DNA of 64,000 bases from NCBI RefSeq assembly GCF_000719335.1, contig NZ_JOGB01000028.1:19557-83556 (forward strand), written 5' to 3'. Below the pieces are notes generated by a model. It was not told the DNA's origin. It was given only the letters and a program-made list of their open reading frames with translations, and did not search any database. Position numbers and translations under genes: made by a program. Every line of letters begins with the position of its first letter. Positions within the stretch are counted from its first letter, which is position 1. Source of the stretch: Streptomyces sp. NRRL S-87. Its GTDB lineage: Bacteria; Actinomycetota; Actinomycetes; Streptomycetales; Streptomycetaceae. Positions 7,531 to 53,404 of this stretch are shown here, piece after piece.

Positions 7531-8179
7531 CGATCCGGGTCCTGGTGGCCGAGGACCAGTCGGCGGTACGGGCGGGGCTGACCTTGATCCTGCGCAGCGC
7601 CGGGGACATCGAGGTGGCCGGGGAGGCCGCGGACGCGAGGAGGCCGTGCGGCTGGCCCGCGAGCTGCGCCCGGACCTGGTGCTCATGGACGTGCAGATGC
7701 CCCGGCTCGACGGCGTGTCGGCCACCCGACAGGTGGTGGCCGAGGGGCTGGCCGACGTGCTGGTGCTGACCACCTTCGACCTCGACGAGTACGTGTTCGG
7801 CGCGCTGCGCGCCGGGGCCGCGGGCTTCCTCCTCAAGAACGCGGAGGCCGCCGAGCTGATCGCGGCCGTGCGGACGGTGGCGCGCGGGGAGGGCCTGATC
7901 GCCCCGGCCGTCACCCGCCGGCTGATCGCGGAGTTCGCCGCGCCCGCCGCGCCGTCACGGAACGCGCACGCCGCCGAGCCCGCGGAGCTGGCGAGCCTGA
8001 CCCGGCGGGAGCGGGAGGTGCTCGGTTGCCTGGGCCAGGGGCTGTCCAACGCGGAGATCGCCGGCCGGCTGGACATGGCGGAGGCGACGGTGAAGACGCA
8101 CGTCAGCCGGCTGCTGGGCAAGCTCGGGCTGCGCAGCCGGGTCCAAGCGGCGGTGATGGCACAGGAGTTGGGACTCTAG
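7527..8179 (+). pseudogene. chiR: NarL/FixJ-type response regulator ChiR, apparent 1-nt frameshift
   Basis: The reading frame starts at ATG 7527, overlapping the kinase stop, and encodes a receiver N-terminus (TIRVLVAEDQSAVRAGL). At residue 36, near 7634, the frame is lost. A downstream frame continues at once with EEAVRLARELRPDLVLMDVQMP, the CheY-like fold and a LuxR-type HTH (LTRREREVLGCLGQGLSNAEIA). Restoring one G after 'ggac' at 7631-7634 gives an uninterrupted 217-aa regulator with the expected D-G-E-E-A junction. Everything else is intact: phospho-acceptor Asp in VLMDVQMP, Lys in FLLKN, HTH. It may be a recent inactivation or a sequencing error. Confidence 0.85.
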
Positions 8180-8206
8180 TGGCGGTCCGGAGAGCTCTTC
8201 CGAAAC

Positions 8207-8248
8207 AGGTCTGGACCTCTTGACGCTTGGTCCAGACCTTTCTACGCT
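8207..8248 (+). promoter_or_regulatory. chiC promoter with two chitinase-type operator boxes
   Basis: A candidate promoter has -35 TTGACG (8220-8225), a 17-bp spacer and -10 TACGCT (8243-8248). Box 1, AGGTCTGGACCT (8207-8218), abuts the -35. Box 2, TGGTCCAGACCT (8228-8239), fills the spacer and sits in opposite orientation, matching box 1's reverse complement at 11 of 12 positions. Box 2 equals the 12-bp repeat reported in Streptomyces chitinase promoters and resembles the DasR operator core TGGTCTAGACCA. Control by DasR and/or ChiR is an inference. Confidence 0.75.
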
Positions 8249-8356
8249 CGCGGCGACTGTGGTGAGCACGCCGTGACAACGCGTGCTCACGGGCGGCGCA
8301 GGTCCCACCCCCATGTCGATATCAGCCGATGCCGACGGACCTACGGAGGAGCACCC

Positions 8357-10198
8357 TTGAGCACAGCACCCCCACGCACCCGTCTCCTGTCCCGGATCGC
8401 GGCCGGCGTCGCCGCGTTCGCCCTCCCCCTCGCCGGCCTCGTCGGCCTGGCGGCCCCCGCCCAGGCCGCGACCTCGGCGTCCGCGACCTACACCAAGGTC
8501 TCCGACTGGGGCAGCGGCTTCGAGGGCAAGTGGACGATCAAGAACACCGGCACCACCACCCTCACCAGCTGGACCGTCGAGTGGGACTACCCCACCGGGA
8601 CGCGGGTCACCTCGGCCTGGGACGCCACCGTCACCAACTCCGGCAACCACTGGACCGGCAAGAACGTGGGCTGGAACGGCACCCTCGCCCCCGGCGCCAG
8701 CATCAGCTTCGGCTTCAACGGCGCCGGCAGCGGCGCTCCCGGCGGCTGCAAGGTCAACGGCGGCTCCTGCGACGGGACCACCCAGCCCGGCGACAACCCG
8801 CCCTCGGCCCCCGGCACCCCCACGGCCGCGAACGTCCAGGAGACCTCCCTCACCCTGAACTGGGCCGCCGCCACCGACGACAAGGGCGTCAAGAACTACG
8901 ACGTCTACCGCAACGGCGCCAGGATCGGCACCGTCACCGGGACCAGCTACCCCGACACCGGCCTGACGAAGGGCACGACGTACACCTACAGCGTCACCGC
9001 CCGCGACACCGCCGACCAGACCGGCCCCTCCTCCGGCGAGCTCTCGGTCACCACGCCCGGCGGCGGCACCCAGCCCCCGACCGGCGGCAAGATCCGACTG
9101 GGCTACTTCACCGACTGGGGCATCTACCAGCGCAACTACCAGGTGAAGAACATCGTCACCTCGGGCTCCGCGGCCAAGCTGACCCACATCAACTACGCCT
9201 TCGGCAACGTCACCGGCGGCAAGTGCACGATCGGCGACTCGTACGCCGACTACGACAAGGCCTTCACTGCCGGCGAGAGCGTCGACGGCGTGGCCGACAC
9301 CTGGGACCAGCCGCTGCGCGGCAACTTCAACCAGCTGCGCAAGCTGAAGAAGGCCTACCCGAACATCAAGGTCCTGTGGTCCTTCGGCGGCTGGACCTGG
9401 TCCGGCGGCTTCGGCCAGGCGGCCGCCAACGCCGCCGCCTTCGCCGATTCCTGCTACAGCCTGGTCGAGGACCCGCGCTGGGCCGACGTCTTCGACGGCA
9501 TCGACGTCGACTGGGAGTACCCGAACGCCTGCGGCCTGTCGTGCGACACCAGCGGCCAGGCCTCGCTGAAGAACCTGCTCGCCGCCCTGCGCGCCAAGTT
9601 CGGCGCGAACAACCTGGTCACCGCCGCCGTCACCGCCGACGGCTCCAGCGGCGGCAAGATGGACGCCGCCGACTACGCGGGCGCCGCGCAGTACGTCGAC
9701 TGGTACAACGTGATGACGTACGACTTCTTCGGCGCCTGGGACGCCAAGGGCCCGACCGCCCCGCACTCCCCCCTGTACTCCTACGCCGGCATCCCGATCC
9801 AGGGCTTCAACACCGACGCCGCCGTCCAGAAGTACAAGGGCAAGGGCATCCCCAACAGCAAGATCAACCTGGGCATCGGCTTCTACGGCCGCGGCTGGAC
9901 GGGCGTGACCCAGGCCGCCCCCGGCGGCACCGCGACCGGCCCGGCGGCCGGCACGTACGAGCAGGGCATCGAGGACTACGACGTCCTGAAGGCGAAGTGC
10001 CCGGCCACCGGCACCGTCGCCGGCACCGCGTACGCCAAGTGCGGCAGCGACTGGTGGAGCTACGACACCCCCGCCACGATCAACGGGAAGATGGCGTACG
10101 TGAAGAACCAAGGCCTGCGCGGCGCCTTCTTCTGGGAGTTCAGCGGCGACACCGCGAACGGCGAGCTGATGACCGCGATCGACAGCGGCCTGAAGTAG
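8357..10198 (+). CDS. chiC: Secreted family 18 chitinase (CBM2 - FnIII - GH18)
   Basis: A 613-aa exported enzyme. The TTG at 8357 is chosen because a GGAGGA ribosome-binding site lies 6 nt upstream; an in-frame ATG at 8273 would disrupt the signal peptide. A Sec signal peptide ends near APAQA (about residue 37). Then come a CBM2-type chitin/cellulose-binding module with conserved Trp residues (about 38-140), an FnIII domain (about 155-235) and a GH18 barrel. The catalytic motif DGIDVDWE occupies residues 380-387, with Glu387 as the acid/base. It hydrolyses chitin to chito-oligosaccharides outside the cell. It is monocistronic, behind chiS-chiR. Confidence 0.95.
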   Translation: MSTAPPRTRLLSRIAAGVAAFALPLAGLVGLAAPAQAATSASATYTKVSDWGSGFEGKWTIKNTGTTTLTSWTVEWDYPTGTRVTSAWDATVTNSGNHWTGKNVGWNGTLAPGASISFGFNGAGSGAPGGCKVNGGSCDGTTQPGDNPPSAPGTPTAANVQETSLTLNWAAATDDKGVKNYDVYRNGARIGTVTGTSYPDTGLTKGTTYTYSVTARDTADQTGPSSGELSVTTPGGGTQPPTGGKIRLGYFTDWGIYQRNYQVKNIVTSGSAAKLTHINYAFGNVTGGKCTIGDSYADYDKAFTAGESVDGVADTWDQPLRGNFNQLRKLKKAYPNIKVLWSFGGWTWSGGFGQAAANAAAFADSCYSLVEDPRWADVFDGIDVDWEYPNACGLSCDTSGQASLKNLLAALRAKFGANNLVTAAVTADGSSGGKMDAADYAGAAQYVDWYNVMTYDFFGAWDAKGPTAPHSPLYSYAGIPIQGFNTDAAVQKYKGKGIPNSKINLGIGFYGRGWTGVTQAAPGGTATGPAAGTYEQGIEDYDVLKAKCPATGTVAGTAYAKCGSDWWSYDTPATINGKMAYVKNQGLRGAFFWEFSGDTANGELMTAIDSGLK

Positions 10199-37663: not shown

Positions 37664-37735
37664 GCCCCCGTAGCTCAGGGGATAGAGCAACGGCCTCCGG
37701 AGCCGTGTGCGCAGGTTCGAATCCTGCCGGGGGCA
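37664..37735 (+). tRNA. tRNA-Arg (anticodon CCG)
   Basis: A full cloverleaf. The 7-bp acceptor stem pairs GCCCCCG with CGGGGGC, and the discriminator is A37735. The D-arm is GCTC/GAGC. The anticodon stem ACGGC/GCCGT closes loop CTCCGGA, giving anticodon CCG (Arg, CGG). The T-arm is GCAGG/CCTGC with loop TTCGAAT. No CCA is encoded. Its 3' half is the integration site of the element that follows, and the integrated element restores the complete gene. Confidence 0.98.
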
Positions 37736-37740
37736 CTTCG
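37692..37740 (+). repeat. Left attachment site (att core, 49 bp)
   Basis: This 49-bp stretch covers the tRNA-Arg anticodon loop through the 3' end plus 5 bp. It recurs identically at 53356-53404. Identity stops sharply on both sides (C versus G before; C versus T after). It is the crossover region of a tyrosine-recombinase element and keeps the tRNA functional. Confidence 0.95.
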
Positions 37741-39323: not shown

Positions 39324-39508
39324 GCAGCGGCCCCCTCAAGACCCCGAAGCCAGGCGACGAAGTCGCTCCGCCAGACCCGCAGCTCACCGTTCGGGAGCTT
39401 GAAGGAGGCCGGCCCAGTGCCCAGCTCCCGCCAGCGGTAGAAGGTCCGCCGGGAGACCCCACCCAGCTCGGCGAGGACCTCGGGGACGGTCATCAGCTGA
39501 TCCTTCAC
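39320..39508 (-). CDS. xis: Excisionase-type helix-turn-helix protein
   Basis: A 62-aa MerR-like/HTH_17 protein: 'MTVPEVLAELGGVSRRTFYRWRELGTGP' forms the winged helix and 'NGELRVWRSDFVAWL' the wing. Such proteins bend att DNA for excision. It overlaps int by 4 bp and also overlaps the rep stop by 4 bp (39505-39508), so rep-xis-int is one translational unit, as in pSAM2. Confidence 0.92.
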   Translation of the reverse strand: MKDQLMTVPEVLAELGGVSRRTFYRWRELGTGPASFKLPNGELRVWRSDFVAWLRGLEGAAA

Positions 39509-40904
39509 GCCGGGTCTCCTTCCAGGTCAAGTTCGGCTCGTAGTTCTCGGGCGTGGTCGCGGTTGTGCTGGATGTCGCGGCGGATGTTGGCGGCGAGCCA
39601 GGATTCGCCGGGGGTGTGGCCGTGGCCGGCGTAGGCCCAGTGGGCGACGACCAGGAGCGTGGCCTCGGGGTGATCGTTGGGGTCGGGCAGGCCGAGGGCG
39701 GTGCGTTGCTGGGCTGCGCGGTAGTCGGCGCGGACCTGGCGTAAGGCGCCGAGGGTGGTGGAGTAGCGGCGGGACTTGGTGGAGAAGTGGCCGCGGAAGC
39801 CGAGCATGTGGGCCCAGGCCCGAAGGCGCCGATCCGGGTAGGCCCGGTCGAGGTCCATGCAGGCTTCCATGAGGCGGCGAGGGTGGTCGGGCACGCCCAG
39901 GAGGACTAGGGCTTCCTTGTTGCCCACCGGGTGGTCCACGGTGCCGGTCGTCTCGGCGGCCTTGGTGGCGTACTTGGCGACGTAGGCGGCGACCGCCTGC
40001 TCCGTCACCTCTTCCCCGTCCCCGAAGGCCCCGATGGGCTGGACGTCAAGCTGATCGCCCCACCGCAGGACCCAGTCCGTGTCGAAACCGTGCTCGGGGC
40101 GGCCGGCACGACGACGCGTACGCGGGCGGCAGCGGCCCGGATCGCATCGGTGAGCAGGTCGAGGGTGGCCCAGGCCGGGGGCGGCGTGTCGGGCCCGTCG
40201 GCGCCGTCGAAGCGGACGACAGCGTGGAAGTGGACGGCCCCGCGCTTCTGGTATTCGGCGACCTTGCCGAAGGAGACGCGGGACTGCTCGCGGGCGGCTT
40301 TTTGGGTCAGGCCGGCCCGGCGGGCGATCTCCCGACGGAGGTAGATCGTGAAGTAGCGCCACAGCTCGGAGGCGTGGTTGTTCCAGAGCACCGCGCCCGC
40401 GTAGCCATAGGTGTCCGGGTCCAGCGGCGTGCCCAGCTCTGAGGCGTCCTCGGCGTGTCGGACCCCGCAGCGGCACGGGCGCGTGCCTGGGCGGTTGTGG
40501 ACCGGCCCGAAGGACGGCGCGGTCAGGGTGGCGAAGACGCGGGGGTGGTCGCGGGTCGTCTCGGGCGTGCCCTTGTCGGCGGCCCCGACGAGTCCGGCCC
40601 GGATGAGGTGGTAGGTGTCCCCGGCGTAGGTCCAGGCGCAGGCGGGGCAGCGCGAGGCGCGGCGGTTGCCGCAGGCGACGCGAAGGACCCCGCCGGGCTC
40701 GGCGTCGGTGGTGTAGGCGTGGAGCACGGTCCGGGTGGCCGGGTCGAGGAGCTTGGTGCCGCCAGTCAGACGGATGGGGGCGGCGCATCCTCCGGTGCGG
40801 CGGAGTTGTTCGGTGAGGCGGTCGAAGTCGGGAGCCCCGGCCACCCGGAGCAGGTCGCTCAGGGTGGCCGGGTCCAGGCCCGCCGCGGTGGCGGTGTCGG
40901 TCAA
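39505..40904 (-). pseudogene. repSA: RepSA-type replication initiator, apparent 1-nt frameshift
   Basis: From TTG 40904 the frame reads the RepSA N-terminus (TDTATAAGLDPATL), a Cys-rich 'CGNRRASRCPACAWTYAGDTYH' and the HUH-like 'GAVHFHAVVRFDG'. Near the GGGG run at 40096-40099 the frame shifts. The next frame continues 'EHGFDTDWVLRWGDQLDVQPIG' to the stop. Restoring one G (C on the coding strand) gives a 466-aa protein, the normal length. RepSA starts rolling-circle replication of the excised element. It is either inactivated or a sequencing error. Confidence 0.88.
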
Positions 40905-40908
40905 GGTG

Positions 40909-41091
40909 TCACTTCCCGGCGCGGACGAGGGCGGTCGGGAGGGCGCGGGTGCCGTTGCCCTTGCAGGTCGGGCAGGTGGCGGGAAGGGTGCGGCGCTGTC
41001 CGTCCGGGTTGGTGGCCCCGGTGGTGATGTGGACGACGGGGAAGCCGTCGCAGTGGGAGCAGACACGCGTGCTCGGGGGCTGGTGCATCAT
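40909..41091 (-). CDS. Small zinc-knuckle protein of the AICE
   Basis: A 60-aa protein with two CxxC pairs, 'CSHCDGFPV' and 'CPTCKGNGT', likely a Zn ribbon. Its stop lies just upstream of the TTG chosen for rep, so they may be coupled. Small proteins like this are common beside rep in AICEs; function unknown. Confidence 0.75.
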   Translation of the reverse strand: MMHQPPSTRVCSHCDGFPVVHITTGATNPDGQRRTLPATCPTCKGNGTRALPTALVRAGK

Positions 41092-41408: not shown

Positions 41409-41963
41409 TCAGCGAGTGTTGCGCCTGCCGTGGCCCTTGGCCGCGTACATCGACATGTCGGCGGCGGAGAGGGCGTCGGTGAGCACCGGGACAGGCAGGT
41501 GTTCACGGGAGCAGTGACCGACCGAGGCCGAGACGCGCAGAACGTGGCTGTTGTGGGTGACCGGCTCATCCAGCGCGGCGCGCAGGGCCGACAGGCCAGC
41601 CGTGTGGTCGGGGTCGGTGACGATGGCGGCGAACTCGTCCCCGCCGAGCCGCGCGGCGATGCCGTGGCGTCCGCACCAGGTGGCCAGGCGGTGGGCGGTG
41701 GCGGTGAGGACCGAGTCGCCGGCGGCGTGGCCGTGGGTGTCGTTGATGGCCTTGAAGTCGTCCAGGTCGACCAGGACCACGAGAGCGCTGGGATGCCTGG
41801 CCATCAGGTGTTCGGCGCGGGCGGTCCACCCGGAGCGGGTGTGCAGCCCGGTCAGGGGGTCGCGGCGGGCGGTGGCCAGGCGGCGCAGGAGCAGCCCGCC
41901 GTGGAGGGCCCATCCCAGGGCCGGTAAGCCCGCAGCGATGACGAGCGCGTCCATGACGGTCAC
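41409..41963 (-). CDS. GGDEF-domain protein (putative diguanylate cyclase) on the AICE
   Basis: A 184-aa protein from GTG 41963, which overlaps the upstream stop by GTGA (ATG 41954 is the alternative). One N-terminal hydrophobic segment precedes a GGDEF domain. It has 'RDPLTGLHTRSGW', 'LVVLVDLDDFKAINDTHGHAAGD' (metal-binding Asp), the catalytic 'RLGGDEFAAIV' and 'ADMSMYAAKGHGR'. All catalytic residues look intact; an RxxD inhibitory site is not evident. Such enzymes make c-di-GMP, which controls Streptomyces development through BldD (established knowledge). Confidence 0.9.
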   Translation of the reverse strand: MTVMDALVIAAGLPALGWALHGGLLLRRLATARRDPLTGLHTRSGWTARAEHLMARHPSALVVLVDLDDFKAINDTHGHAAGDSVLTATAHRLATWCGRHGIAARLGGDEFAAIVTDPDHTAGLSALRAALDEPVTHNSHVLRVSASVGHCSREHLPVPVLTDALSAADMSMYAAKGHGRRNTR

Positions 41964-42250
41964 CGGCCCTTCTGGAGGTCCTTGACGAGCAGGCGCAGGA
42001 CCACCGTGATCACAGCGACGGAGACCCCGGTGATGGCGACCGCGAGGAGCATCGAGACCAGGACGGCGCCGACGACCAGGACCACGGCTCCTCCGCCGGC
42101 GGCGAGGGCCAGCGCGCTGCCGGGGGTGAGCTGGACGGTGGCCCGTGCCGTCGCGGACTCGCGGCGGGGCTCGATGTCGGGGGCGGGCGGCGAGGGCAGC
42201 GGGATCGTGCCGGTCGGGAGCGGGTTGACGGGGATGCGGGGGCGGAGCAT
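41960..42250 (-). CDS. SpdD-like membrane protein
   Basis: A 96-aa protein. A Pro-rich N-terminus (about 45 residues) is followed by two adjacent transmembrane helices (ALALAAGGGAVVLVVGAVLVSMLL and AVAITGVSVAVITVVLRLLV). Proteins of this type (SpdD) serve intramycelial plasmid spread. It overlaps the GGDEF gene by 4 bp. Confidence 0.75.
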   Translation of the reverse strand: MLRPRIPVNPLPTGTIPLPSPPAPDIEPRRESATARATVQLTPGSALALAAGGGAVVLVVGAVLVSMLLAVAITGVSVAVITVVLRLLVKDLQKGR

Positions 42251-42262
42251 GGCGAGGTCTCC

Positions 42263-42418
42263 CTACTTCGTGATCGGGTCGATGAGCGGGGCGAACAAAC
42301 TGTCGGCGAGGAGGTAGCCGCCGAGGAGGATCACGGCGACGAGCCACCAGGGCGGGCGGATGAGCTTGATGCCGAGGGCGCCGACGACGATCAGCGCGAG
42401 CCAGAGCGGGACGTCCAT
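42263..42418 (-). CDS. 51-aa membrane protein of the transfer block
   Basis: Reads MDVPLWLALIVVGALGIKLI, then PPWWLVAVILLGGYLLADSL and a short polar end. It starts at ATG 42418 and stops at 42263, 12 bp before the SpdD-like gene. Two transmembrane helices fill most of it. The compact position between transfer genes supports it as a real Spd-type protein. Confidence 0.75.
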   Translation of the reverse strand: MDVPLWLALIVVGALGIKLIRPPWWLVAVILLGGYLLADSLFAPLIDPITK

Positions 42419-43664: not shown

Positions 43665-45014
43665 CTAGTCCGCCGCCGGAACCGGCTGCACGAGCGGGAT
43701 GGACTCGCCCGGCGTGGTCTTGGCGGGGACGGCCGGCCGGTACGGTGCGAGGACGGGAAGCGTCGGGGTCAGGTGCGCGTACTCGGCGCAGATGGCGGCG
43801 GCCTTGGCCGCGCTCAGCTCAGGCGTACGGATTCGGGACCAGCCGCCGGAGGAATCACCCGCAACCGCGACCCCGGGCATATCGGCCCGGAGGGTCAGCA
43901 CGGCGACCACCGCGTCCGGGGCGATGTCGCCCAGGCCCATGTCGGCGGTCTGCTTGTCGTTGACGCGGTGGACCGTCCGGCCGGTGAGCTGGGCCCGGAG
44001 GGTGGTGGCGCCCTTGCCGAGGTCGGAGCCGAACCGCTGCCCGCAGATCTCCAGGAAGATGCCGGCTGCGCGGGCCATCTGACCGAGGCGGACCAGCTGC
44101 GTGACCATCCGGTCCCGGCGTTCTTCGTCCTTCTTGCTGGCGATCAGGAACAGTTCGGCAACCTCGTCCACCAGCAGGACGATCGGCACCGGGCGAACCT
44201 TCTCGGACAGCGCCCAGATGTCGGCGGCGCCATGCTCGCTGAGCAGGTCGAAGCGGTCCTCCATCTCCATCACGAGCGCGTCCAGGAGCCCGGACGCCTC
44301 CTCCGGCGTGATCGCGAGGGCCGACAGGCGGGGTGCATACCCCCGCTGCTCGACACCGCGCTTGCAGTCGATCCCCACCAGCGCCACCGGCAGGCGGGCG
44401 AGCCCGGCCACCAGGTTGCGCTGGTACATGGACTTGCCCGACTGGTTGGCGCCGAGCGTCAGCGCGTGCGGGACCTTCAGGTAGTCCCGTATGAACGCGG
44501 TGCCGTCCTCGCGGAGCGCGACGGGGACCGTCATCGGCCCGGCGGGCACCCGGCGCGGCATTCGCACCTTCCGCAGCACGTCGTAGCCTGTCATGCGCAG
44601 CTCGACGAACCCCGGCTTGATCTCCACCACGTTGACCGAGTGGACGCCCCAGGCGTGCCGCAGCCGCTCCGAGGCTGCGACCACGTCGGCGGGCTCAAGA
44701 CCGGCGGGAAGACGGAGCGTGACCCGCAGCCCGGTCGAGGACCCGCGCACCCGGCGGACCTTCGGCGGAACGGGCTGGACGTCACTGCGGCGGGCGATGT
44801 TGCGCGCCATGAACGCCCGCAGGCGGGACGGCTGCACCGTCAGCCCGCACACATCCATCGTGGAGCGGTACGTCACCGTGAACCGCACCTGCGCGGCCGG
44901 CAGACCCACCAGCGACCAGTAGACGCGGGGTGCGCGGACCTTCGCGTAGCCGAGGCCGCCACCGGCGCCGGCCAGCGGAAGACCGACCTCCCATAACGCC
45001 GTCAGGTCGGCCAT
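43665..45014 (-). CDS. traB: TraB-type DNA translocase (FtsK/SpoIIIE family)
   Basis: A 449-aa protein. The Walker A motif GANQSGKS is at about 188-195 and Walker B is in 'VPIVLLVDEVAELFLIA'. The C-terminal 'GRTVHRVNDKQTADMGLGDIAPDA' and a final helical domain correspond to the translocase end that binds clt sites. TraB moves double-stranded DNA between mycelia during Streptomyces conjugation (established knowledge). It starts 2 bp after the stop of the upstream SCO3933-like gene. Confidence 0.93.
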   Translation of the reverse strand: MADLTALWEVGLPLAGAGGGLGYAKVRAPRVYWSLVGLPAAQVRFTVTYRSTMDVCGLTVQPSRLRAFMARNIARRSDVQPVPPKVRRVRGSSTGLRVTLRLPAGLEPADVVAASERLRHAWGVHSVNVVEIKPGFVELRMTGYDVLRKVRMPRRVPAGPMTVPVALREDGTAFIRDYLKVPHALTLGANQSGKSMYQRNLVAGLARLPVALVGIDCKRGVEQRGYAPRLSALAITPEEASGLLDALVMEMEDRFDLLSEHGAADIWALSEKVRPVPIVLLVDEVAELFLIASKKDEERRDRMVTQLVRLGQMARAAGIFLEICGQRFGSDLGKGATTLRAQLTGRTVHRVNDKQTADMGLGDIAPDAVVAVLTLRADMPGVAVAGDSSGGWSRIRTPELSAAKAAAICAEYAHLTPTLPVLAPYRPAVPAKTTPGESIPLVQPVPAAD

Positions 45015-45501: not shown

Positions 45502-46296
45502 GTGGCGCCGAAGTGGAGAGAGCTGGCAGACAAGCTGGCCGAGCAGATCAGACGGGGCGACTACGCCCCCGGCCAGCAATTGCCGCACATCAGGGAGCTG
45601 GTAGACGCCGGTGAGGGCTCGAAGGCGACCGTCCACGCGGCCTACAAGGCGCTGGAAGCGGAAGGCTTGGTGACCTCATCCCGAGGTCACGGAACTGTTG
45701 TACGTCAGCAAGTTCCGCTGAAGCGGCTCGGCATCGCCCGCTACGACAAGGCCAAGTGGCGTGACGGGGACGAGGTGGCGTTCATCGCGGACCGCGTGGC
45801 CTCTGGCCGGGCGTACCGCCGGAACGAGCAGACCCAGTCTGTCAGCCTCGTTGAGGCGCCGGCCGAGGTGGCTGCCGCACATGGCCTACCGGTGGGCGCG
45901 CCGGTCTACGCCCGCGCACGGCTGGTGAAGGAAGGCGACCAGCCAACGCACACGCTGACCAGTTACTACCGACCGGAGCACGTCGAAGGAACCCGACTGG
46001 TGGATCCGACACCCGGCCCGGCTGGCCGCGGTGGTGGCTTCCGCGTCCTGTACGACGCCGGCTACGAGATCGACCACATGAAGGAGCGGATCTTCGCCCG
46101 TACGCCCACTGCTGACGAGGTGAGGCTCTTGCAGCTTCTGCAGGGCGAATGGGTGGTCGAGCTGCACCGGACGACCTACACAGCCGACGGCACCGTGGTC
46201 GAATTCGCTATCGGCGTGCACGCTGCTTCGCGCTTCGCCTGGGAGTACGACTTCCAGGTGCCGGACTCGGCGAATGACAGGGAAGGCCAGAAGTGA
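45502..46296 (+). CDS. GntR/HutC-type transcriptional regulator (KorSA-like)
   Basis: A 264-aa protein from GTG 45502 with AAAGGGA upstream. The N-terminal wHTH is 'WRELADKLAEQIRRGDYAPGQQLPHIRELV' and 'SKATVHAAYKALEAEGLV'. A UTRA ligand-binding domain fills the rest. In pSAM2, KorSA of this family represses pra and itself to keep the element integrated. It overlaps the next gene by GTGA. Confidence 0.9.
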   Translation: MAPKWRELADKLAEQIRRGDYAPGQQLPHIRELVDAGEGSKATVHAAYKALEAEGLVTSSRGHGTVVRQQVPLKRLGIARYDKAKWRDGDEVAFIADRVASGRAYRRNEQTQSVSLVEAPAEVAAAHGLPVGAPVYARARLVKEGDQPTHTLTSYYRPEHVEGTRLVDPTPGPAGRGGGFRVLYDAGYEIDHMKERIFARTPTADEVRLLQLLQGEWVVELHRTTYTADGTVVEFAIGVHAASRFAWEYDFQVPDSANDREGQK

Positions 46297-49208: not shown

Positions 49209-50717
49209 GTGCCAGACGCATGCCAGGTGAGTCGGGGAACCATGGACAGCGGGGGACGCTGGGACGGGGCACCAGTTTCCGCAGGTCAAGCCGCTCTTCG
49301 GGTTCTCAACATCGGTGATTCCCAAGCTCATAGCCTCGGAAGTTCCGCCCGCCTGTCAGTGCTGGCCGCTACCGTCGTCGAAGATCGTCAGGCCCGTACT
49401 GCTGTGGGGGGATACGTGGGTGGTCAGTTGCGTGTTGGTCAGGTTTATCGCTACGCGACCGGCAAGGATCCGGTGCCAGCGATGCTGGACGGGTACCCCA
49501 ACTTCCACCACGTGACCCACTCTCCGGAACTCGCTCGGGCTTTGCTGGAGGCCGGCATCAACGGCATGGCGAAGGTCCGGACGGCCGACGCGGAACGCCG
49601 GCCAGTGATCCTCATCCGATCAAGTCCATGGAAGGCCGGCACCGAGCAGACGCCCTGGCATGACGTGTTCGACATGGACAACGGGCACGTCCGCTACTTC
49701 GGTGACCACAAGGCCACCACCACCGTCGCGCCGGGGAAGACCAACGGCAATGCGGCCCTGCTCGATGCCTTCACGGGGCACCAGGGGCACACGCCCGAGG
49801 AGCGGGCCGCCGCCATCCCGTTGCTGCTGTTCCGGGCGGTCTCGCGCAGCGGCAAGGTCAAGGGGCACGTCGAGTTCTGTGGTCTGGGGATCATCGAGAG
49901 GGCCGAGCGGCTGGTGCAGTGGGGCGGCAGCGACCACACGACGTTTACGAACTACGTCTACGACATTGCTCTGATCGACCTCACGGACGAAGACGACAAG
50001 GTCTCGTGGGAGTGGATCGGCTCCCGCAGGGACAAGACCGTGGGCAACACGGAGACTCTCGAACAAGCTCCGCGGGCTTGGCGTGAGTGGGTCAAGCACG
50101 GGAACTCGGCCCTGCCCAGGATCCGCCGTCGGGTTGCCCGGGCCAAGGTGACCAAGGTGCCAGAGCAGCGCCCCAAGCCGGGAACCACCGAAGCCAAGGA
50201 CCTGGAGCTGATCTACAAATACTTCGACGGCCGTAAGCACGACTTCGAGGCCGTGGCGTCCGCGGTCGCGGCCCGTGTGTTCCGTGGAGCCGGGAACAGC
50301 TACGTCGAGGGGTGGCTGACGCGCAGGTCCGGCGACGGCGGAGCGGACTTCGTCGGCCGGCTCGACATCGGCAGTGGTCTCGCCGGTACCAGTCTGGTCG
50401 TCCTCGGCCAGGCCAAGTGCGTCAAGCTCGACAACCTGGTCACTGCCGAGCAGATCGCTCGTGTCGTGGCCCGACTGCGACGCGGCTGGATCGGCGTATA
50501 CGTCACGACCGGGGCCTACTCCGTGCCTGCACAGACCGAAATTGTTGAGGACCAGTACCCGATCGTTCTGATCAACGGGGTGGACCTGGCTCGGGAGCTC
50601 AGGAGCATGGCCCGGGACGACCACGGCGGAGACCTCGAGGCCTGCATCGATCACATACTCACCGGACGAGAGACCACCGTCACAAACCGGCGGCCCGAAG
50701 AGATTCTGCTTGAGTAG
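49209..50717 (+). CDS. AspBHI-like modification-dependent restriction endonuclease
   Basis: A 502-aa protein from GTG 49209; ATG 49242 is possible. The N-terminal half resembles the AspBHI recognition domain (SRA-like): 'HVRYFGDHKA', 'GNAALLDAF', 'IPLLLFRAV' and 'FTNYVYDIALI' appear in order. The C-terminal part is an Mrr-like nuclease: 'SYVEGWLTRRSGDGGADFVGR' (Asp380) and 'VVLGQAKCV' (Gln401-x-Lys403). AspBHI-type enzymes cleave DNA with 5-methylcytosine. It lies on the AICE just upstream of a C5 methyltransferase. Confidence 0.8.
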   Translation: MPDACQVSRGTMDSGGRWDGAPVSAGQAALRVLNIGDSQAHSLGSSARLSVLAATVVEDRQARTAVGGYVGGQLRVGQVYRYATGKDPVPAMLDGYPNFHHVTHSPELARALLEAGINGMAKVRTADAERRPVILIRSSPWKAGTEQTPWHDVFDMDNGHVRYFGDHKATTTVAPGKTNGNAALLDAFTGHQGHTPEERAAAIPLLLFRAVSRSGKVKGHVEFCGLGIIERAERLVQWGGSDHTTFTNYVYDIALIDLTDEDDKVSWEWIGSRRDKTVGNTETLEQAPRAWREWVKHGNSALPRIRRRVARAKVTKVPEQRPKPGTTEAKDLELIYKYFDGRKHDFEAVASAVAARVFRGAGNSYVEGWLTRRSGDGGADFVGRLDIGSGLAGTSLVVLGQAKCVKLDNLVTAEQIARVVARLRRGWIGVYVTTGAYSVPAQTEIVEDQYPIVLINGVDLARELRSMARDDHGGDLEACIDHILTGRETTVTNRRPEEILLE

Positions 50718-50938
50718 CTGTCTGGAAGCCCACGTATCGGCAGCCGAATTCGAAGTCCCCTCGACGGCCTGATCTGGGAAAACACCCCGCGCCACAAGGG
50801 TCCGTTGATCAACTAGTAGATCCATCGATCCCGACAGCAGCGGCGCTGTCACCGGTGCGCGATACCCTGATACGCGCTGTTCAGATGCCGACAACCCCGG
50901 CTCGGACGCCCTCATGCCAACACCCCCGTGGAGAGCAA

Positions 50939-52039
50939 GTGCAGCCCGTCCAGATCGTTGACCTGTTCGCCGGACCTGGCGGGCTCGACGTCGCCGCCGA
51001 GAAGCTGGGCCTAGCGACAGTGGGTGTGGAATGGGATTCAGCTGCATGCGCAACGCGCCACGCGGCCGGGTTGGCAACGATCGAGGACGACGTGCGCCGG
51101 TACGGACCAGCCTTCTTTCCTGACGCCGATGTACTCGCAGGCGGGCCGCCCTGCCAGACCTTCACCGTTGCAGGGAATGGCGCTGGGCGCAGGGCACTCG
51201 ATGACGTATTGGCCTTCGTCGATCGGATGGTGGCCCGAGAGGACCGCGAAGAGATCGCGAAGGACCTCTCCAAGCTGGAGGACGAGCGGACCGGTCTGGT
51301 ATTGGAGCCGCTTCGCTGGGCGTTGGAAGCAATCGACGATCTCGACAAGCCCTATCGAGCGATTGTGTTGGAGCAGGTCCCCGCGGTACTCCCGGTTTGG
51401 GAAGCCTACGCCGAGGCTCTGCGCAGCGAGGGCTACTCGGTCAACTGTGGACTCCTGCGCACAGAGGCATACGGGGTTCCTCAAACCCGCAAAAGAGCTG
51501 TCCTCGTCGCTCGAATGGGATCTGAGCCAGTGAAGCTGCCAGCCCCCACCCATCGCACCTATCGCAAAGGGATTTCACGTGACTCAGGGGACATTCGCCT
51601 GGAACCCTGGCGCACGATGGAAGACGTCCTGAACCGAGATTCGCCTTTCTTGGTGATCTCAAACTACGGAACTGGCGGAGAACCCAAGGCGCGTGGGCGG
51701 CGCGGGTCATGGGAGCCCTCGGCGACCGTAACCGGGAAAATCTCACGCAACCGGGTGGTATCGGTCGATGGCGTCGAGATGGATCGATTCTCTTTCTCGG
51801 AAGCAGGCCGCCTCCAAACATTCCCGACGGATTACCCTTGGTCCGGCCAAGACGTCGGGCAGCAGATCGGAAATGCCGTTCCTCCTCGCCTCGCCATCCA
51901 TGTCCTTTGTGCCGAATTCGGCTGGGAACCGCCAACTGACGCCCTAAATAATCTCGGAACGTGGATGTCCAAGAGCGCCACTGGAGTAGATCGCACCAAG
52001 TCTTATGCGTCGCGCATGCCCGCAATGGCTTCTGCGTAA
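50939..52039 (+). CDS. C5-cytosine DNA methyltransferase
   Basis: A 366-aa protein from GTG 50939 (VQPVQIVDLF), with GGAGAG upstream; a frame from 50855 lacks a clear site. Motif I DLFAGPGGLD, motif IV GGPPCQTF (nucleophile Cys72), motif VI EQV (usually ENV), motif VIII QTRKR (182-186) and motif X QQIGNAVPP (from 308) are in the canonical order. The target-recognition region lies between VIII and IX. It presumably protects against the adjacent NaeI-like enzyme. An 18-bp palindromic stretch (50833-50850) lies in its upstream region. Confidence 0.95.
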   Translation: MQPVQIVDLFAGPGGLDVAAEKLGLATVGVEWDSAACATRHAAGLATIEDDVRRYGPAFFPDADVLAGGPPCQTFTVAGNGAGRRALDDVLAFVDRMVAREDREEIAKDLSKLEDERTGLVLEPLRWALEAIDDLDKPYRAIVLEQVPAVLPVWEAYAEALRSEGYSVNCGLLRTEAYGVPQTRKRAVLVARMGSEPVKLPAPTHRTYRKGISRDSGDIRLEPWRTMEDVLNRDSPFLVISNYGTGGEPKARGRRGSWEPSATVTGKISRNRVVSVDGVEMDRFSFSEAGRLQTFPTDYPWSGQDVGQQIGNAVPPRLAIHVLCAEFGWEPPTDALNNLGTWMSKSATGVDRTKSYASRMPAMASA

Positions 52040-52091
52040 CCGACAAAAGAAGCCACTGCCAATTACTTGACGACTGTGGAGTAACTCAACA

Positions 52092-53246
52092 ATGGATGAG
52101 CAACTTCTCTTCGGATCAGACCTGGTTGAACGGCAAGGTGCGCACGCCCGTCGGGCCGACAAAATGGCAGCCACCTCAATCGGACAGCCCATCCCCAGCA
52201 CTCGCGAGGCTGACCGAGGCATAGGCACCGCCTTCGATTTTTTCTTGCCGGACGTGAGCAGCCGAATGGGTGCGATCATCCGGAAGGCCACGGATGAAGT
52301 CATCGCTACGCCCCGCACCCGCCGCTGGACACTCGACCAATGCAACGACCAGGAGAAGGGCTACCTGGGCGTGAATATCGAGAACATTGTGCGCGGTGAA
52401 TACCAGCTGGATGAGGGCTCCGCTGGCATGGACTTCGACGTGCGCGGTGTCGACGTCGATTGCAAGTGGTCTCGCAATTTTGGGGGCTGGCAGATACCCC
52501 CGGAGGCTGTGGGTCACATCTGCCTTTTGGTACACGGAGATGACGTAACCGGTGAGATGGCAGTAGGCCTCATCCGCATTAGGGACGAGATCCTAGTGGG
52601 TGGAAACCGCGATGGAAAGCGCACCATCCAGAGCCCGGGCGGCATTTGCGAGATCCTCTGGCTCGTTCAGCCTGGGACACCGATCCCAGAGAATTTCCTG
52701 ATGAGCCTTCGTAAGGAAGACCGTGACGCCATTCTCGCTCCGCGAGGCGGCGACGCACGGGCTTTGGAACTCTTCAAACGCTGTGAAGGCATGATCATTC
52801 ACCGCCACACCATCGAGTCCATCGGACAGCAGGTAGACGAGGCGCGTCGCTTCCGCGGAGAGACTCGCCAGAGATTGCTTGAAGAAGGCTTCGAGGTTCT
52901 CAACGGCCATTGGAAAGCCAACCGTGAACGGGCTTTGGAGTTGGGAGGGTTGAAGCTCAGCAACGGAAGCCAGTGGGCCTGCTTGCGAACCGACGGCTCC
53001 TCCCCGGCGAGGCTGGCTGCCCTGAGTCCAGCTAGGCAGGCAGAGTCCCTCGCCTACCGGAAGACGTTCAGCGAGCAAATCGCCGCAGAGCGTAGGGCAA
53101 AGAAGCGGGCGCGGAAAGCCGCCAAGGCCGCAGCCATACACGAGCCGGCCAACCTGATCACTCCCGATGATGATGCCGAGTACGCTAAGCAAGCTTTCGC
53201 ACAGGCCGAGAGCGCGGCTGTAAGCGCGGGCACTCTCTTCGCCTAG
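52092..53246 (+). CDS. NaeI-family type IIE restriction endonuclease
   Basis: A 384-aa protein. The catalytic domain aligns with NaeI as I recall it. Matches are 'RTRRWTLDQ', Glu97 in 'VNIENIV', Asp114 in 'MDFDV', Asp123-Cys124-Lys125 in 'VDVDCKWS' (NaeI Glu70/Asp86/Asp95-Cys96-Lys97), then 'WQIPPEAVGHICLL'. The C-terminal ~200 residues would be the DNA-binding effector domain. NaeI cuts GCCGGC and needs two sites. The gene lies 52 bp after the methyltransferase. Specificity here is inferred, not shown. Confidence 0.88.
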   Translation: MDEQLLFGSDLVERQGAHARRADKMAATSIGQPIPSTREADRGIGTAFDFFLPDVSSRMGAIIRKATDEVIATPRTRRWTLDQCNDQEKGYLGVNIENIVRGEYQLDEGSAGMDFDVRGVDVDCKWSRNFGGWQIPPEAVGHICLLVHGDDVTGEMAVGLIRIRDEILVGGNRDGKRTIQSPGGICEILWLVQPGTPIPENFLMSLRKEDRDAILAPRGGDARALELFKRCEGMIIHRHTIESIGQQVDEARRFRGETRQRLLEEGFEVLNGHWKANRERALELGGLKLSNGSQWACLRTDGSSPARLAALSPARQAESLAYRKTFSEQIAAERRAKKRARKAAKAAAIHEPANLITPDDDAEYAKQAFAQAESAAVSAGTLFA

Positions 53247-53355: not shown

Positions 53356-53404
53356 GGCCTCCGGAGCCGTGTGCGCAGGTTCGAATCCTGCCGGGGGCAC
53401 TTCG
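53356..53404 (+). repeat. Right attachment site (att core, 49 bp)
   Basis: An exact copy of 37692-37740. It is the 3' half of tRNA-Arg only, with no 5' half, so it is not a functional tRNA. It marks the right end of the AICE. Confidence 0.95.

What the first reader, a model, noticed from the sequence alone, without database searches (positions are those of the whole stretch)
49209..53246. Defence module joining a 5mC-dependent nuclease with a NaeI-type restriction-modification pair
An AspBHI-like enzyme that cuts methylated DNA sits beside a C5 methyltransferase and NaeI-like enzyme. Together they could cut both unmethylated and foreign-methylated DNA. The nuclease must not cut the pair's own methylated site, so the specificities must be matched. 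I know of no description of this combination on an AICE. The genes look less GC-rich than neighbours, suggesting separate acquisition.
Basis: partly seen in the sequence, partly recalled or inferred. Interest (0 to 1): 0.72.

Follow-up and report, generated by a model that had tools for sequence, protein, structure and literature searches.

The report
Two restriction systems on mobile element
A mobile DNA element in an actinobacterium carries two neighbouring DNA-cutting defence systems, one predicted to attack unmarked DNA and one to attack wrongly marked DNA, and sequence evidence suggests how the second could avoid cutting the cell's own mark.

Summary
The three genes are real, open and in line on a 15.7 kb tRNA-Arg element of AICE type (49-bp att repeats). 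The first is an MspJI-type nuclease, not AspBHI-type: 54% identical to MspJI, 456 versus 77 bits, with the 5mC-pocket, K173 and catalytic residues kept. The others are a C5 methyltransferase (MTase) and a NaeI-type endonuclease with NaeI's active-site residues and fold. The site is probably GCCGGC: 7 of 9 close copies of this MTase lie beside NaeI-type or NgoMIV-type enzymes, among them a second copy in the same genome. This turns "specificities must be matched" into one prediction: MspJI needs a purine three bases 3' of mC, so GC(mC)GGC is never cut and G(mC)CGGC always is; the MTase should methylate the inner C. The trio is rare but occurs in three arrangements (Streptomyces, Nonomuraea, Glycomyces); 21 of 25 MspJI-type loci lack a nearby C5 MTase. 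Composition and related elements suggest that the MTase-NaeI pair was acquired separately from the MspJI-type gene. RM plus a modification-dependent nuclease is a known design; I found no paper with this pairing. Activity, methylation and functional coupling are not shown.

The parts
49416..50717 (+). MspJI-type 5mC-dependent restriction endonuclease, 433 aa (open frame from 49209); SRA-like N-terminal domain plus Mrr-type PD-QxK nuclease
   Evidence: Pfam PF18062 and PF04471; 4F0P 456 bits versus AspBHI 4OC8 77 bits; pocket residues, E65, K173 and D/Q/K catalytic residues identical in the window and in 22 of 22 near-full-length relatives, Q33 not kept
50939..52039 (+). DNA (cytosine-5) methyltransferase, 366 aa (open frame from 50855); inferred target GCCGGC
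   Evidence: PF00145; relatives beside NaeI-type and NgoMIV-type enzymes; target-recognition stretch 75% and 69% identical to the NgoMIV-paired copies
52092..53246 (+). NaeI-type restriction endonuclease, 384 aa, with an extra C-terminal helical part
   Evidence: PF09126 9.1e-59; 1EV7 7.4e-35; E97, D114, D123, K125 invariant in an alignment of 41; AlphaFold2 model pLDDT 86, best PDB match 1IAW, TM 0.73 by target and 0.59 by query length
37664..37736 (+). tRNA-Arg (CCG), integration target
   Evidence: ARAGORN
37692..37740 (+). attL, 49-bp direct repeat
   Evidence: exact match to 53356-53404
53356..53404 (+). attR, 49-bp direct repeat, 110 bp after the NaeI-type gene
   Evidence: same tRNA-Arg core after the NaeI-type gene in L010
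37950..39323 (-). tyrosine-integrase-like gene
   Evidence: PF00589 24.9 bits, just under its 27.1 cut-off
39505..41066 (-). RepSA-type replication initiator, read in two overlapping frames
   Evidence: PF20199 in 40005-41066 (profile 1-267) and 39505-40788 (profile 265-437)
43665..45014 (-). FtsK/SpoIIIE-type transfer ATPase (TraB-like)
   Evidence: PF01580 6.4e-30
45502..46296 (+). GntR/UTRA regulator, a type known from AICEs
   Evidence: PF00392, PF07702

Best explanation
An AICE-type element carries two mutually compatible restriction layers. (1) A type II RM pair: the C5 MTase methylates GCCGGC in the host, and the NaeI-type enzyme cuts GCCGGC on DNA lacking that mark. (2) An MspJI-type nuclease flips 5mC (or 5hmC) out of incoming DNA and cuts beside mCNNR, so it attacks DNA that escapes layer 1 through foreign cytosine modification. 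Layer 2 spares the host because the MTase marks the inner cytosine, GC(mC)GGC, whose +3 base is C, never a purine. Shown here: genes, domains, conserved residues, element, and the MTase subfamily's position beside two enzyme families whose founders cut GCCGGC. Inferred: GCCGGC as the site (about 0.85), inner-C methylation (about 0.75), mCNNR for this homologue (about 0.8), expression and activity.
For: MspJI identity and residues (roles of pocket, E65 and K173 from PMC4499157, passages read; the numbers D334/Q355/K357 are recalled, the PD-QxK type is in PMC12707154). NaeI identity, active site and fold (equivalence to NaeI E70/D86/D95/K97 recalled). GCCGGC: an 80-81% identical MTase in the same genome sits beside an NgoMIV-family enzyme and Vsr; the S. 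niger relative (78-80%) sits beside an NgoMIV-like and a NaeI-like gene; NaeI = GCC/GGC and NgoMIV = G/CCGGC (PMC6449724, passage). Arithmetic: mCNNR covers 0% of GC(mC)GGC and 100% of G(mC)CGGC sites, any flank. Inner-C methylation of GCCGGC is indicated in nature: MFRE-seq lists GCCGGC for Aeromonas hydrophila with FspEI (PMC8112702, passages), and FspEI needs CmC (PMC3874153, passage). 5hmC phage T4gt DNA resists NaeI (PMC7653180, passage), while the MspJI family cuts hm5C (PMC3874153).
Against: No methylome or assay. The loop carrying K173 is four residues shorter than in MspJI, and Q33, another base-near residue (dispensable in MspJI), is T here, so the +3 rule may not carry over. 2 of 9 MTase copies at 70% or more (G078, G272) have neither a NaeI-like nor an NgoMIV-like gene in their stretch. 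Identity of the target-recognition stretch falls off smoothly, also into MTases of other cluster types (61% in L124, 52% in L127), so it does not by itself prove one site. The A. hydrophila case is one list entry at 1.8% of sites. The host has further C5-MTase-like genes of unknown site (one frame-broken at C8, one divergent at C23). RepSA is split into two frames, and AICE cargo often decays (PMC9513070). No promoter-like site was found, though that scan suits Streptomyces poorly.
Confidence: 0.6

Rival explanations
1. Unlinked cargo: two independent defence genes or pairs that landed in the same AICE cargo slot and happen to be compatible, with no joint selection.
For: 21 of 25 MspJI-type loci have no C5 MTase in the stretch held. 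Of the four MspJI-type loci where the same tRNA-Arg core was found (window, L008, L010, L026), the MspJI-type gene stands alone in L008 and L026, 118 and 116 bp from the core; the pair lies in between in the window and L010. Base composition of the pair differs from that of the MspJI-type gene. 9 of 25 loci match the window's Int, Rep, FtsK or 163-aa gene nearby. NaeI-like genes are not clearly enriched in MspJI+ genomes: 3 of 11 versus 58 of 381, p 0.24.
Against: The trio occurs in three arrangements (window/L010; L025; L013), and 4 of 25 loci have a C5 MTase nearby against about 0.1 expected at random positions under an assumed density, though defence genes cluster anyway. MTases at 70% identity or more occur in 4 of 11 MspJI+ and 2 of 381 other genus genomes (not corrected for kinship, threshold chosen after seeing the data).
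Confidence: 0.5
2. The MTase methylates the outer cytosine, and this MspJI clade has shifted its context preference through its shorter K173 loop, so that it spares G(mC)CGGC.
For: Loop 78 is four residues shorter in the window and in the 22 aligned relatives; loops of this family set context (PMC4499157). A 5mC-dependent enzyme for GmCCGGC (KroI) is listed (PMC3874153), so outer-C methylation is a plausible natural mark.
Against: K173 is kept in 22 of 22; SgeI, 49% identical to MspJI, still reads mCNNR (PMC3874153). The loop is the same in relatives without an MTase nearby.
Confidence: 0.12
3. Silent or decaying cargo: the genes are not expressed or one partner is inactive, so no compatibility is needed.
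For: RepSA reads in two frames; the MspJI-type relative in L025 has a frame break; AICE cargo decay is common (PMC9513070, passages).
Against: All three window genes are open, with the checked catalytic residues kept, and L010 holds 88, 92 and 95% identical copies in the same order.
Confidence: 0.15
4. Competitor exclusion or addiction: the element uses the RM pair for its own upkeep and the MspJI-type gene to kill cells that acquire rival C5 MTases.
For: RM pair next to attR on an integrating element; modification-dependent enzymes can be lethal with incompatible MTases (PMC12707154, passage).
Against: MspJI+ genomes are not poor in C5 MTases: 10 of 11 versus 278 of 381. The host already holds a second MTase of the same inferred site, which would blunt addiction.
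Confidence: 0.1

Closest known systems
MspJI (PDB 4F0P, 4R28) and SgeI, MspJI family of modification-dependent endonucleases
   Same: SRA-like plus Mrr-type domains, 227 of 424 aligned residues identical to MspJI, same pocket and catalytic residues
   Different: K173 loop four residues shorter, Q33 replaced; here encoded next to a GCCGGC-type RM pair on an AICE. SgeI itself was not compared (no sequence at hand)
AspBHI (YSmCNS)
   Same: same family; Pfam names the N-terminal domain after it
   Different: only 77 bits against 456 for MspJI
NaeI type IIE restriction endonuclease
   Same: active-site residues and two-domain fold, TM 0.73 to 1IAW by target length
   Different: 32% identity in the structural alignment, longer N-terminus (low confidence in the model) and extra C-terminal helices; site not tested
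NgoMIV-type GCCGGC RM systems
   Same: share the MTase subfamily: copies 78-81% identical beside NgoMIV-family enzymes in the same genome and in S. niger
   Different: unrelated endonuclease family; here the partner is NaeI-type
pEFER BREX plus BrxU island, and E. coli immigration-control region
   Same: modification-blocked plus modification-dependent restriction side by side (PMC8565348, PMC12707154, passages read)
   Different: different enzymes; here both layers read cytosine methylation, so the compatibility rule is exact
pSAM2-type AICEs
   Same: RepSA, FtsK-type transfer protein, GntR, tRNA att site
   Different: carries this double restriction cargo next to attR; RepSA reads in two frames

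Membership tests
MspJI family | SRA-like N-terminal domain followed by Mrr-type nuclease domain | tested here: met
   PF18062 at 115-298 and PF04471 at 352-462
MspJI family | 5mC pocket S90, W101, D103, Y114, F115, G116, D117 and orphan-G contact E65 | tested here: met
   identical in the window and in 22 of 22 aligned relatives; roles from PMC4499157
MspJI family | D-QxK catalytic site | tested here: met
   D334, Q355, K357 equivalents identical; residue numbers recalled
MspJI/SgeI subgroup | reads purine at +3 (mCNNR) | tested here: inconclusive
   K173 kept but loop four residues shorter and Q33 replaced; needs assay
AspBHI subgroup | closer to AspBHI than to MspJI | tested here: not met
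   77 versus 456 bits
NaeI type IIE | NaeI family profile, active-site residues, two-domain fold | tested here: met
NaeI type IIE | cuts GCC/GGC, activated by a second site | not testable with these tools
   indirect support only, from the shared MTase subfamily
m5C MTase of a GCCGGC RM system | C5 MTase motifs and adjacent endonuclease | tested here: met
   PF00145 and GGPPCQ motif, NaeI-type gene 52 bp downstream
m5C MTase of a GCCGGC RM system | methylates GCCGGC, and which C | not testable with these tools
   inferred from partners and from compatibility
AICE | att repeats at a tRNA gene | tested here: met
   49-bp exact repeat
AICE | RepSA-type initiator and FtsK-type transfer protein | tested here: met
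   RepSA reads in two frames
AICE | tyrosine integrase | tested here: inconclusive
   PF00589 24.9 bits, cut-off 27.1
AICE | excision and conjugal transfer | not testable with these tools
   none

The most novel reading that the evidence does not exclude
The trio forms a position-reading lock at GCCGGC. Unmethylated sites are cut by the NaeI-type enzyme, sites methylated on the outer C (which could protect from it) are cut by the MspJI-type enzyme, and only inner-C methylation passes. The selected combination would test not just whether but where the site is methylated, and would give the MspJI family a natural partner. Occurrence in three gene orders, plus the MTase's enrichment in MspJI+ genomes (uncorrected for kinship), would be the trace of that selection.
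Probability: 0.18. Interest if true: 0.72.

Novelty: new variant of a known kind. Interest (0 to 1): 0.45.

Why it matters
[quoted passage not shown] This locus gives such an enzyme a natural setting with an exact, cheap test: which C of GCCGGC is methylated. It also suggests how mobile elements can combine modification-blocked and modification-dependent restriction without self-attack, and the MTase's two kinds of endonuclease partner (NaeI-type, NgoMIV-type) tie an MTase subfamily with no named site in my searches to a likely one.

Tried and rejected
AspBHI-type assignment: rejected on bit scores. M.NaeI or its methylated base in print: the search for 'M.NaeI' gave 5 papers that look unrelated from their titles and abstracts; passages on gonococcal NgoAIV give GCCGGC/5mC but not the position; S. 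meliloti lists m4C for GCCGGC. GCCGGC, Streptomyces and methylome together: no paper. GCCGGC counts: no avoidance signal; the site is in slight excess of a first-order Markov model (window 142 vs 108, sd 9.5; element 28 vs 20, sd 4.1; cargo 5 vs 2.7). Depletion of C5 MTases in MspJI+ genomes: not seen. Plasmids: 13 records with a distant MspJI-family match, all under 60%, and NaeI-like in 2 records. An AICE survey of Frankia names a C5 methylase as cargo, and the word 'restriction' does not occur in its main text (PMC3218068). Pair-free reading: NCBIfam adds nothing.

Rows dropped before counts. MspJI+ in the genus sample = 11 genomes with near-full-length matches at 70% or more; 17 further genomes of the 28 were left out (5 at 47-53% over about half the protein, 2 with fragments, G212 with 57 residues, 9 AspBHI-like at 30-37%). 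None of those 17 has an MTase match at 70% or more. The 9 AspBHI-like genomes are counted apart; two of them (G201, G214) match over part only. In the protein searches only 3 or 4 first-look candidates per genome were scored, and at most 5, so misses are possible. Residue counts use 22 of 25 loci (L024, L025, L026 matched in pieces or too short), and several of the 22 are near-identical to each other. The 40 NaeI relatives aligned are a choice from 90. The 25 loci come from one scan of word patterns, and several are cut by contig ends. The MTase motif search would miss MTases without a GGPPC-type motif. Gene calls are my own GC3 heuristic. The random-position expectation assumes 2.5 MTases per 8.5 Mb. 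The count '7 of 9 copies' is: window, L010, G109, G318, L025 (NaeI-type), contig C11 of G000 (NgoMIV-type), S. niger (both), against G078 and G272 (neither).
Full report
What is there. Three same-strand genes lie at 49209-53246: a 5mC-dependent nuclease (RE_AspBHI_N plus Mrr_cat), a C5 methyltransferase (MTase) and a NaeI-family endonuclease, each matched by PADLOC models. Relatives point to later starts, GTG 49416 and GTG 50939, with GGGGGA and GGAGA before them. The gaps are then 221 bp and 52 bp, so the MTase and NaeI-type gene look like one unit and the nuclease may be transcribed apart (inference; one search found no promoter-like site).

Where it is. The window is contig C28:19557-83556 of an 8.15 Mb genome, of a genus that I take for Streptomyces because several genomes of the genus sample have contigs as long as those of named Streptomyces records (inference). 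A tRNA-Arg(CCG) at 37664-37736 has its 3' end repeated exactly over 49 bp at 53356-53404. Between the repeats are an integrase-like gene (just below cut-off), RepSA in two frames, an FtsK/SpoIIIE protein, DUF2637 and a GntR regulator. This fits a pSAM2-type AICE. The trio is the last cargo before attR. A tRNA-Arg gene is also an AICE accretion site in PMC9513070 (passages).

The nuclease is MspJI-type. It scores 456 bits against MspJI (4F0P) and 77 against AspBHI, with 227 of 424 aligned residues identical. The residues that PMC4499157 (passages read) gives for the flipped 5mC (S90, W101, D103, Y114, F115, G116, D117), the orphan G (E65) and, as prime candidate, the +3 purine (K173), and D334, Q355 and K357 of the catalytic site (numbers recalled), are identical in the window and in 22 of 22 near-full-length relatives. 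Q33, near the bases but dispensable in MspJI, is T here and varies in the relatives. The loop with K173 is four residues shorter than in MspJI in all of them. So mCNNR is likely but not certain. SgeI, 49% identical to MspJI, keeps mCNNR (PMC3874153).

The RM pair. The third protein matches NaeI (1EV7, 7.4e-35). E97, D114, D123 and K125 are invariant in the 41 aligned sequences. An AlphaFold2 model (pLDDT 86; residues 1-33 poor) finds NaeI-DNA 1IAW as best PDB match over 269 columns, TM 0.73 by target and 0.59 by query length, so both NaeI domains appear present, plus a helical C-terminal extension.

The site. The same genome holds a second MTase of this subfamily (80-81% identical) on contig C11, between genes whose starts look like glnE and glnA (recalled, not scanned), with a Vsr gene and an NgoMIV-family endonuclease (PF09015, 1.8e-47) beside it. 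In S. niger the relative (78-80%) sits beside NgoMIV-like and NaeI-like genes together. In Glycomyces L013 NgoMIV, NaeI-like and Vsr genes lie beside a different MTase (25% identical) and an MspJI-type gene. NaeI and NgoMIV both recognise GCCGGC (PMC6449724, passage). Of nine MTase copies at 70% or more that I looked at with flanks, seven lie beside a NaeI-type or NgoMIV-type gene and two (G078, G272) beside neither. The target-recognition stretch of the window MTase is 75% and 69% identical to the NgoMIV-paired copies, against 83% and 80% for the whole proteins; it falls off smoothly into MTases of other cluster types (61%, 52%), so it supports but does not prove a shared site. GCCGGC is the likely site.

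Compatibility. If the inner C is methylated, GC(mC)GGC, the +3 base is always C: MspJI and AspBHI cut 0%, while FspEI, LpnPI and SgrTI cut all. If the outer C is methylated, MspJI cuts 100% and AspBHI half (with the sites listed in PMC3874153). Inner-C methylation of GCCGGC is indicated in nature: MFRE-seq lists GCCGGC for Aeromonas hydrophila with FspEI, which needs CmC (PMC8112702, passages; 125 of 6,991 sites; that row lists FspEI alone and I did not see whether MspJI was tried). So an active MspJI-type gene with MspJI's site predicts inner-C methylation. The rule that a modification-dependent enzyme tolerates MTases whose sites lack its context base is stated in PMC3874153; the GCCGGC application is mine.

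Association, with cautions. MTases of this subfamily at 70% or more occur in 4 of 11 MspJI+ and 2 of 381 other genomes (Fisher p 5e-6; 2 of 9 and 2 of 381, p 0.003, without the two adjacent trios); at the looser E <= 1e-60 it is 8 of 11 and 61 of 381 (p 7e-5). In the other scan it is 4 of 25 (p 1.6e-4 against 2 of 381); the two sets overlap. NaeI-like genes overall are not enriched (3 of 11 vs 58 of 381, p 0.24), and MspJI+ genomes are not poor in C5 MTases (10 of 11 vs 278 of 381). None of this is corrected for kinship, thresholds were set after seeing the data, and only some first-look candidates were scored.

Assembly of the cargo. In L008 and L026 the MspJI-type gene alone lies 118 and 116 bp from the same tRNA-Arg core; in the window and L010 the MTase-NaeI pair lies in between. 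GC3 is 0.83 for the MspJI-type gene, near that of other element genes, but 0.67 and 0.70 for the pair. In 9 of 25 loci a match (E <= 1e-5) to the window's integrase, Rep, FtsK or 163-aa gene lies nearby. I infer that MspJI-type nucleases are recurrent AICE cargo and that the pair was added separately.

How it most likely works. Unmarked incoming DNA is cut at GCCGGC by the NaeI-type enzyme. DNA with foreign 5mC or 5hmC, which can escape NaeI (T4gt DNA resists NaeI, PMC7653180), is cut by the MspJI-type enzyme. Host DNA, marked on the inner C, passes both. The second MTase in this host would already protect GCCGGC when the element arrives. All of this is inference from sequence and literature.

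Verdict. Each part belongs to a known family and the two-layer design is known. The pairing and the exact compatibility prediction are what is new, as far as my paper searches reach (an open-licence library; papers seen as passages only).

Noticed in passing
39505-41066 (-): The RepSA replication gene of the element reads in two overlapping frames (profile 1-267 and 265-437), either a real frame break or a sequence fault.
   Followed up: no
41409-42347 (-): A GGDEF (diguanylate cyclase) domain protein, E 9.4e-31, lies inside the AICE next to the replication gene.
   Followed up: no
L164:6228-9502 and L013:2427-9305: NgoMIV-like and NaeI-like endonucleases, two unrelated families whose founders cut one site, stand side by side with one MTase in S. 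niger and in Glycomyces.
   Followed up: partly
L117:6794-7948 (-) and 7977-9029 (-): A 76-77% identical NaeI-type gene in G350 has no match to the window MTase within its 15 kb stretch but an HNH-nuclease gene directly upstream; the same tRNA-Arg core lies nearby.
   Followed up: partly
P0194: A 577-aa protein carries a C5 MTase domain and a NaeI domain in one chain.
   Followed up: partly
392 genus genomes: AspBHI-like genes at 30-37% identity co-occur with NaeI-like genes in 7 of 9 genomes versus 54 of 383 others, far apart or on different contigs; not corrected for kinship.
   Followed up: partly
50939-52039: The MTase subfamily has EQV where C5 MTases usually have ENV in motif VI (usual motif recalled).
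   Followed up: no
L135:1266-2466: Another C5 MTase gene of the same host on contig C8 appears frame-broken after its FPCQ motif.
   Followed up: no
L124, L126, L127, L128, L130: MTases at 60-66% identity to the window's form clusters with a second, distant MTase and a Vsr gene, possibly a two-MTase system.
   Followed up: no
L021:8001-9869: An MspJI-type gene is followed directly by a Vsr gene, with no C5 MTase found in the locus.
   Followed up: no
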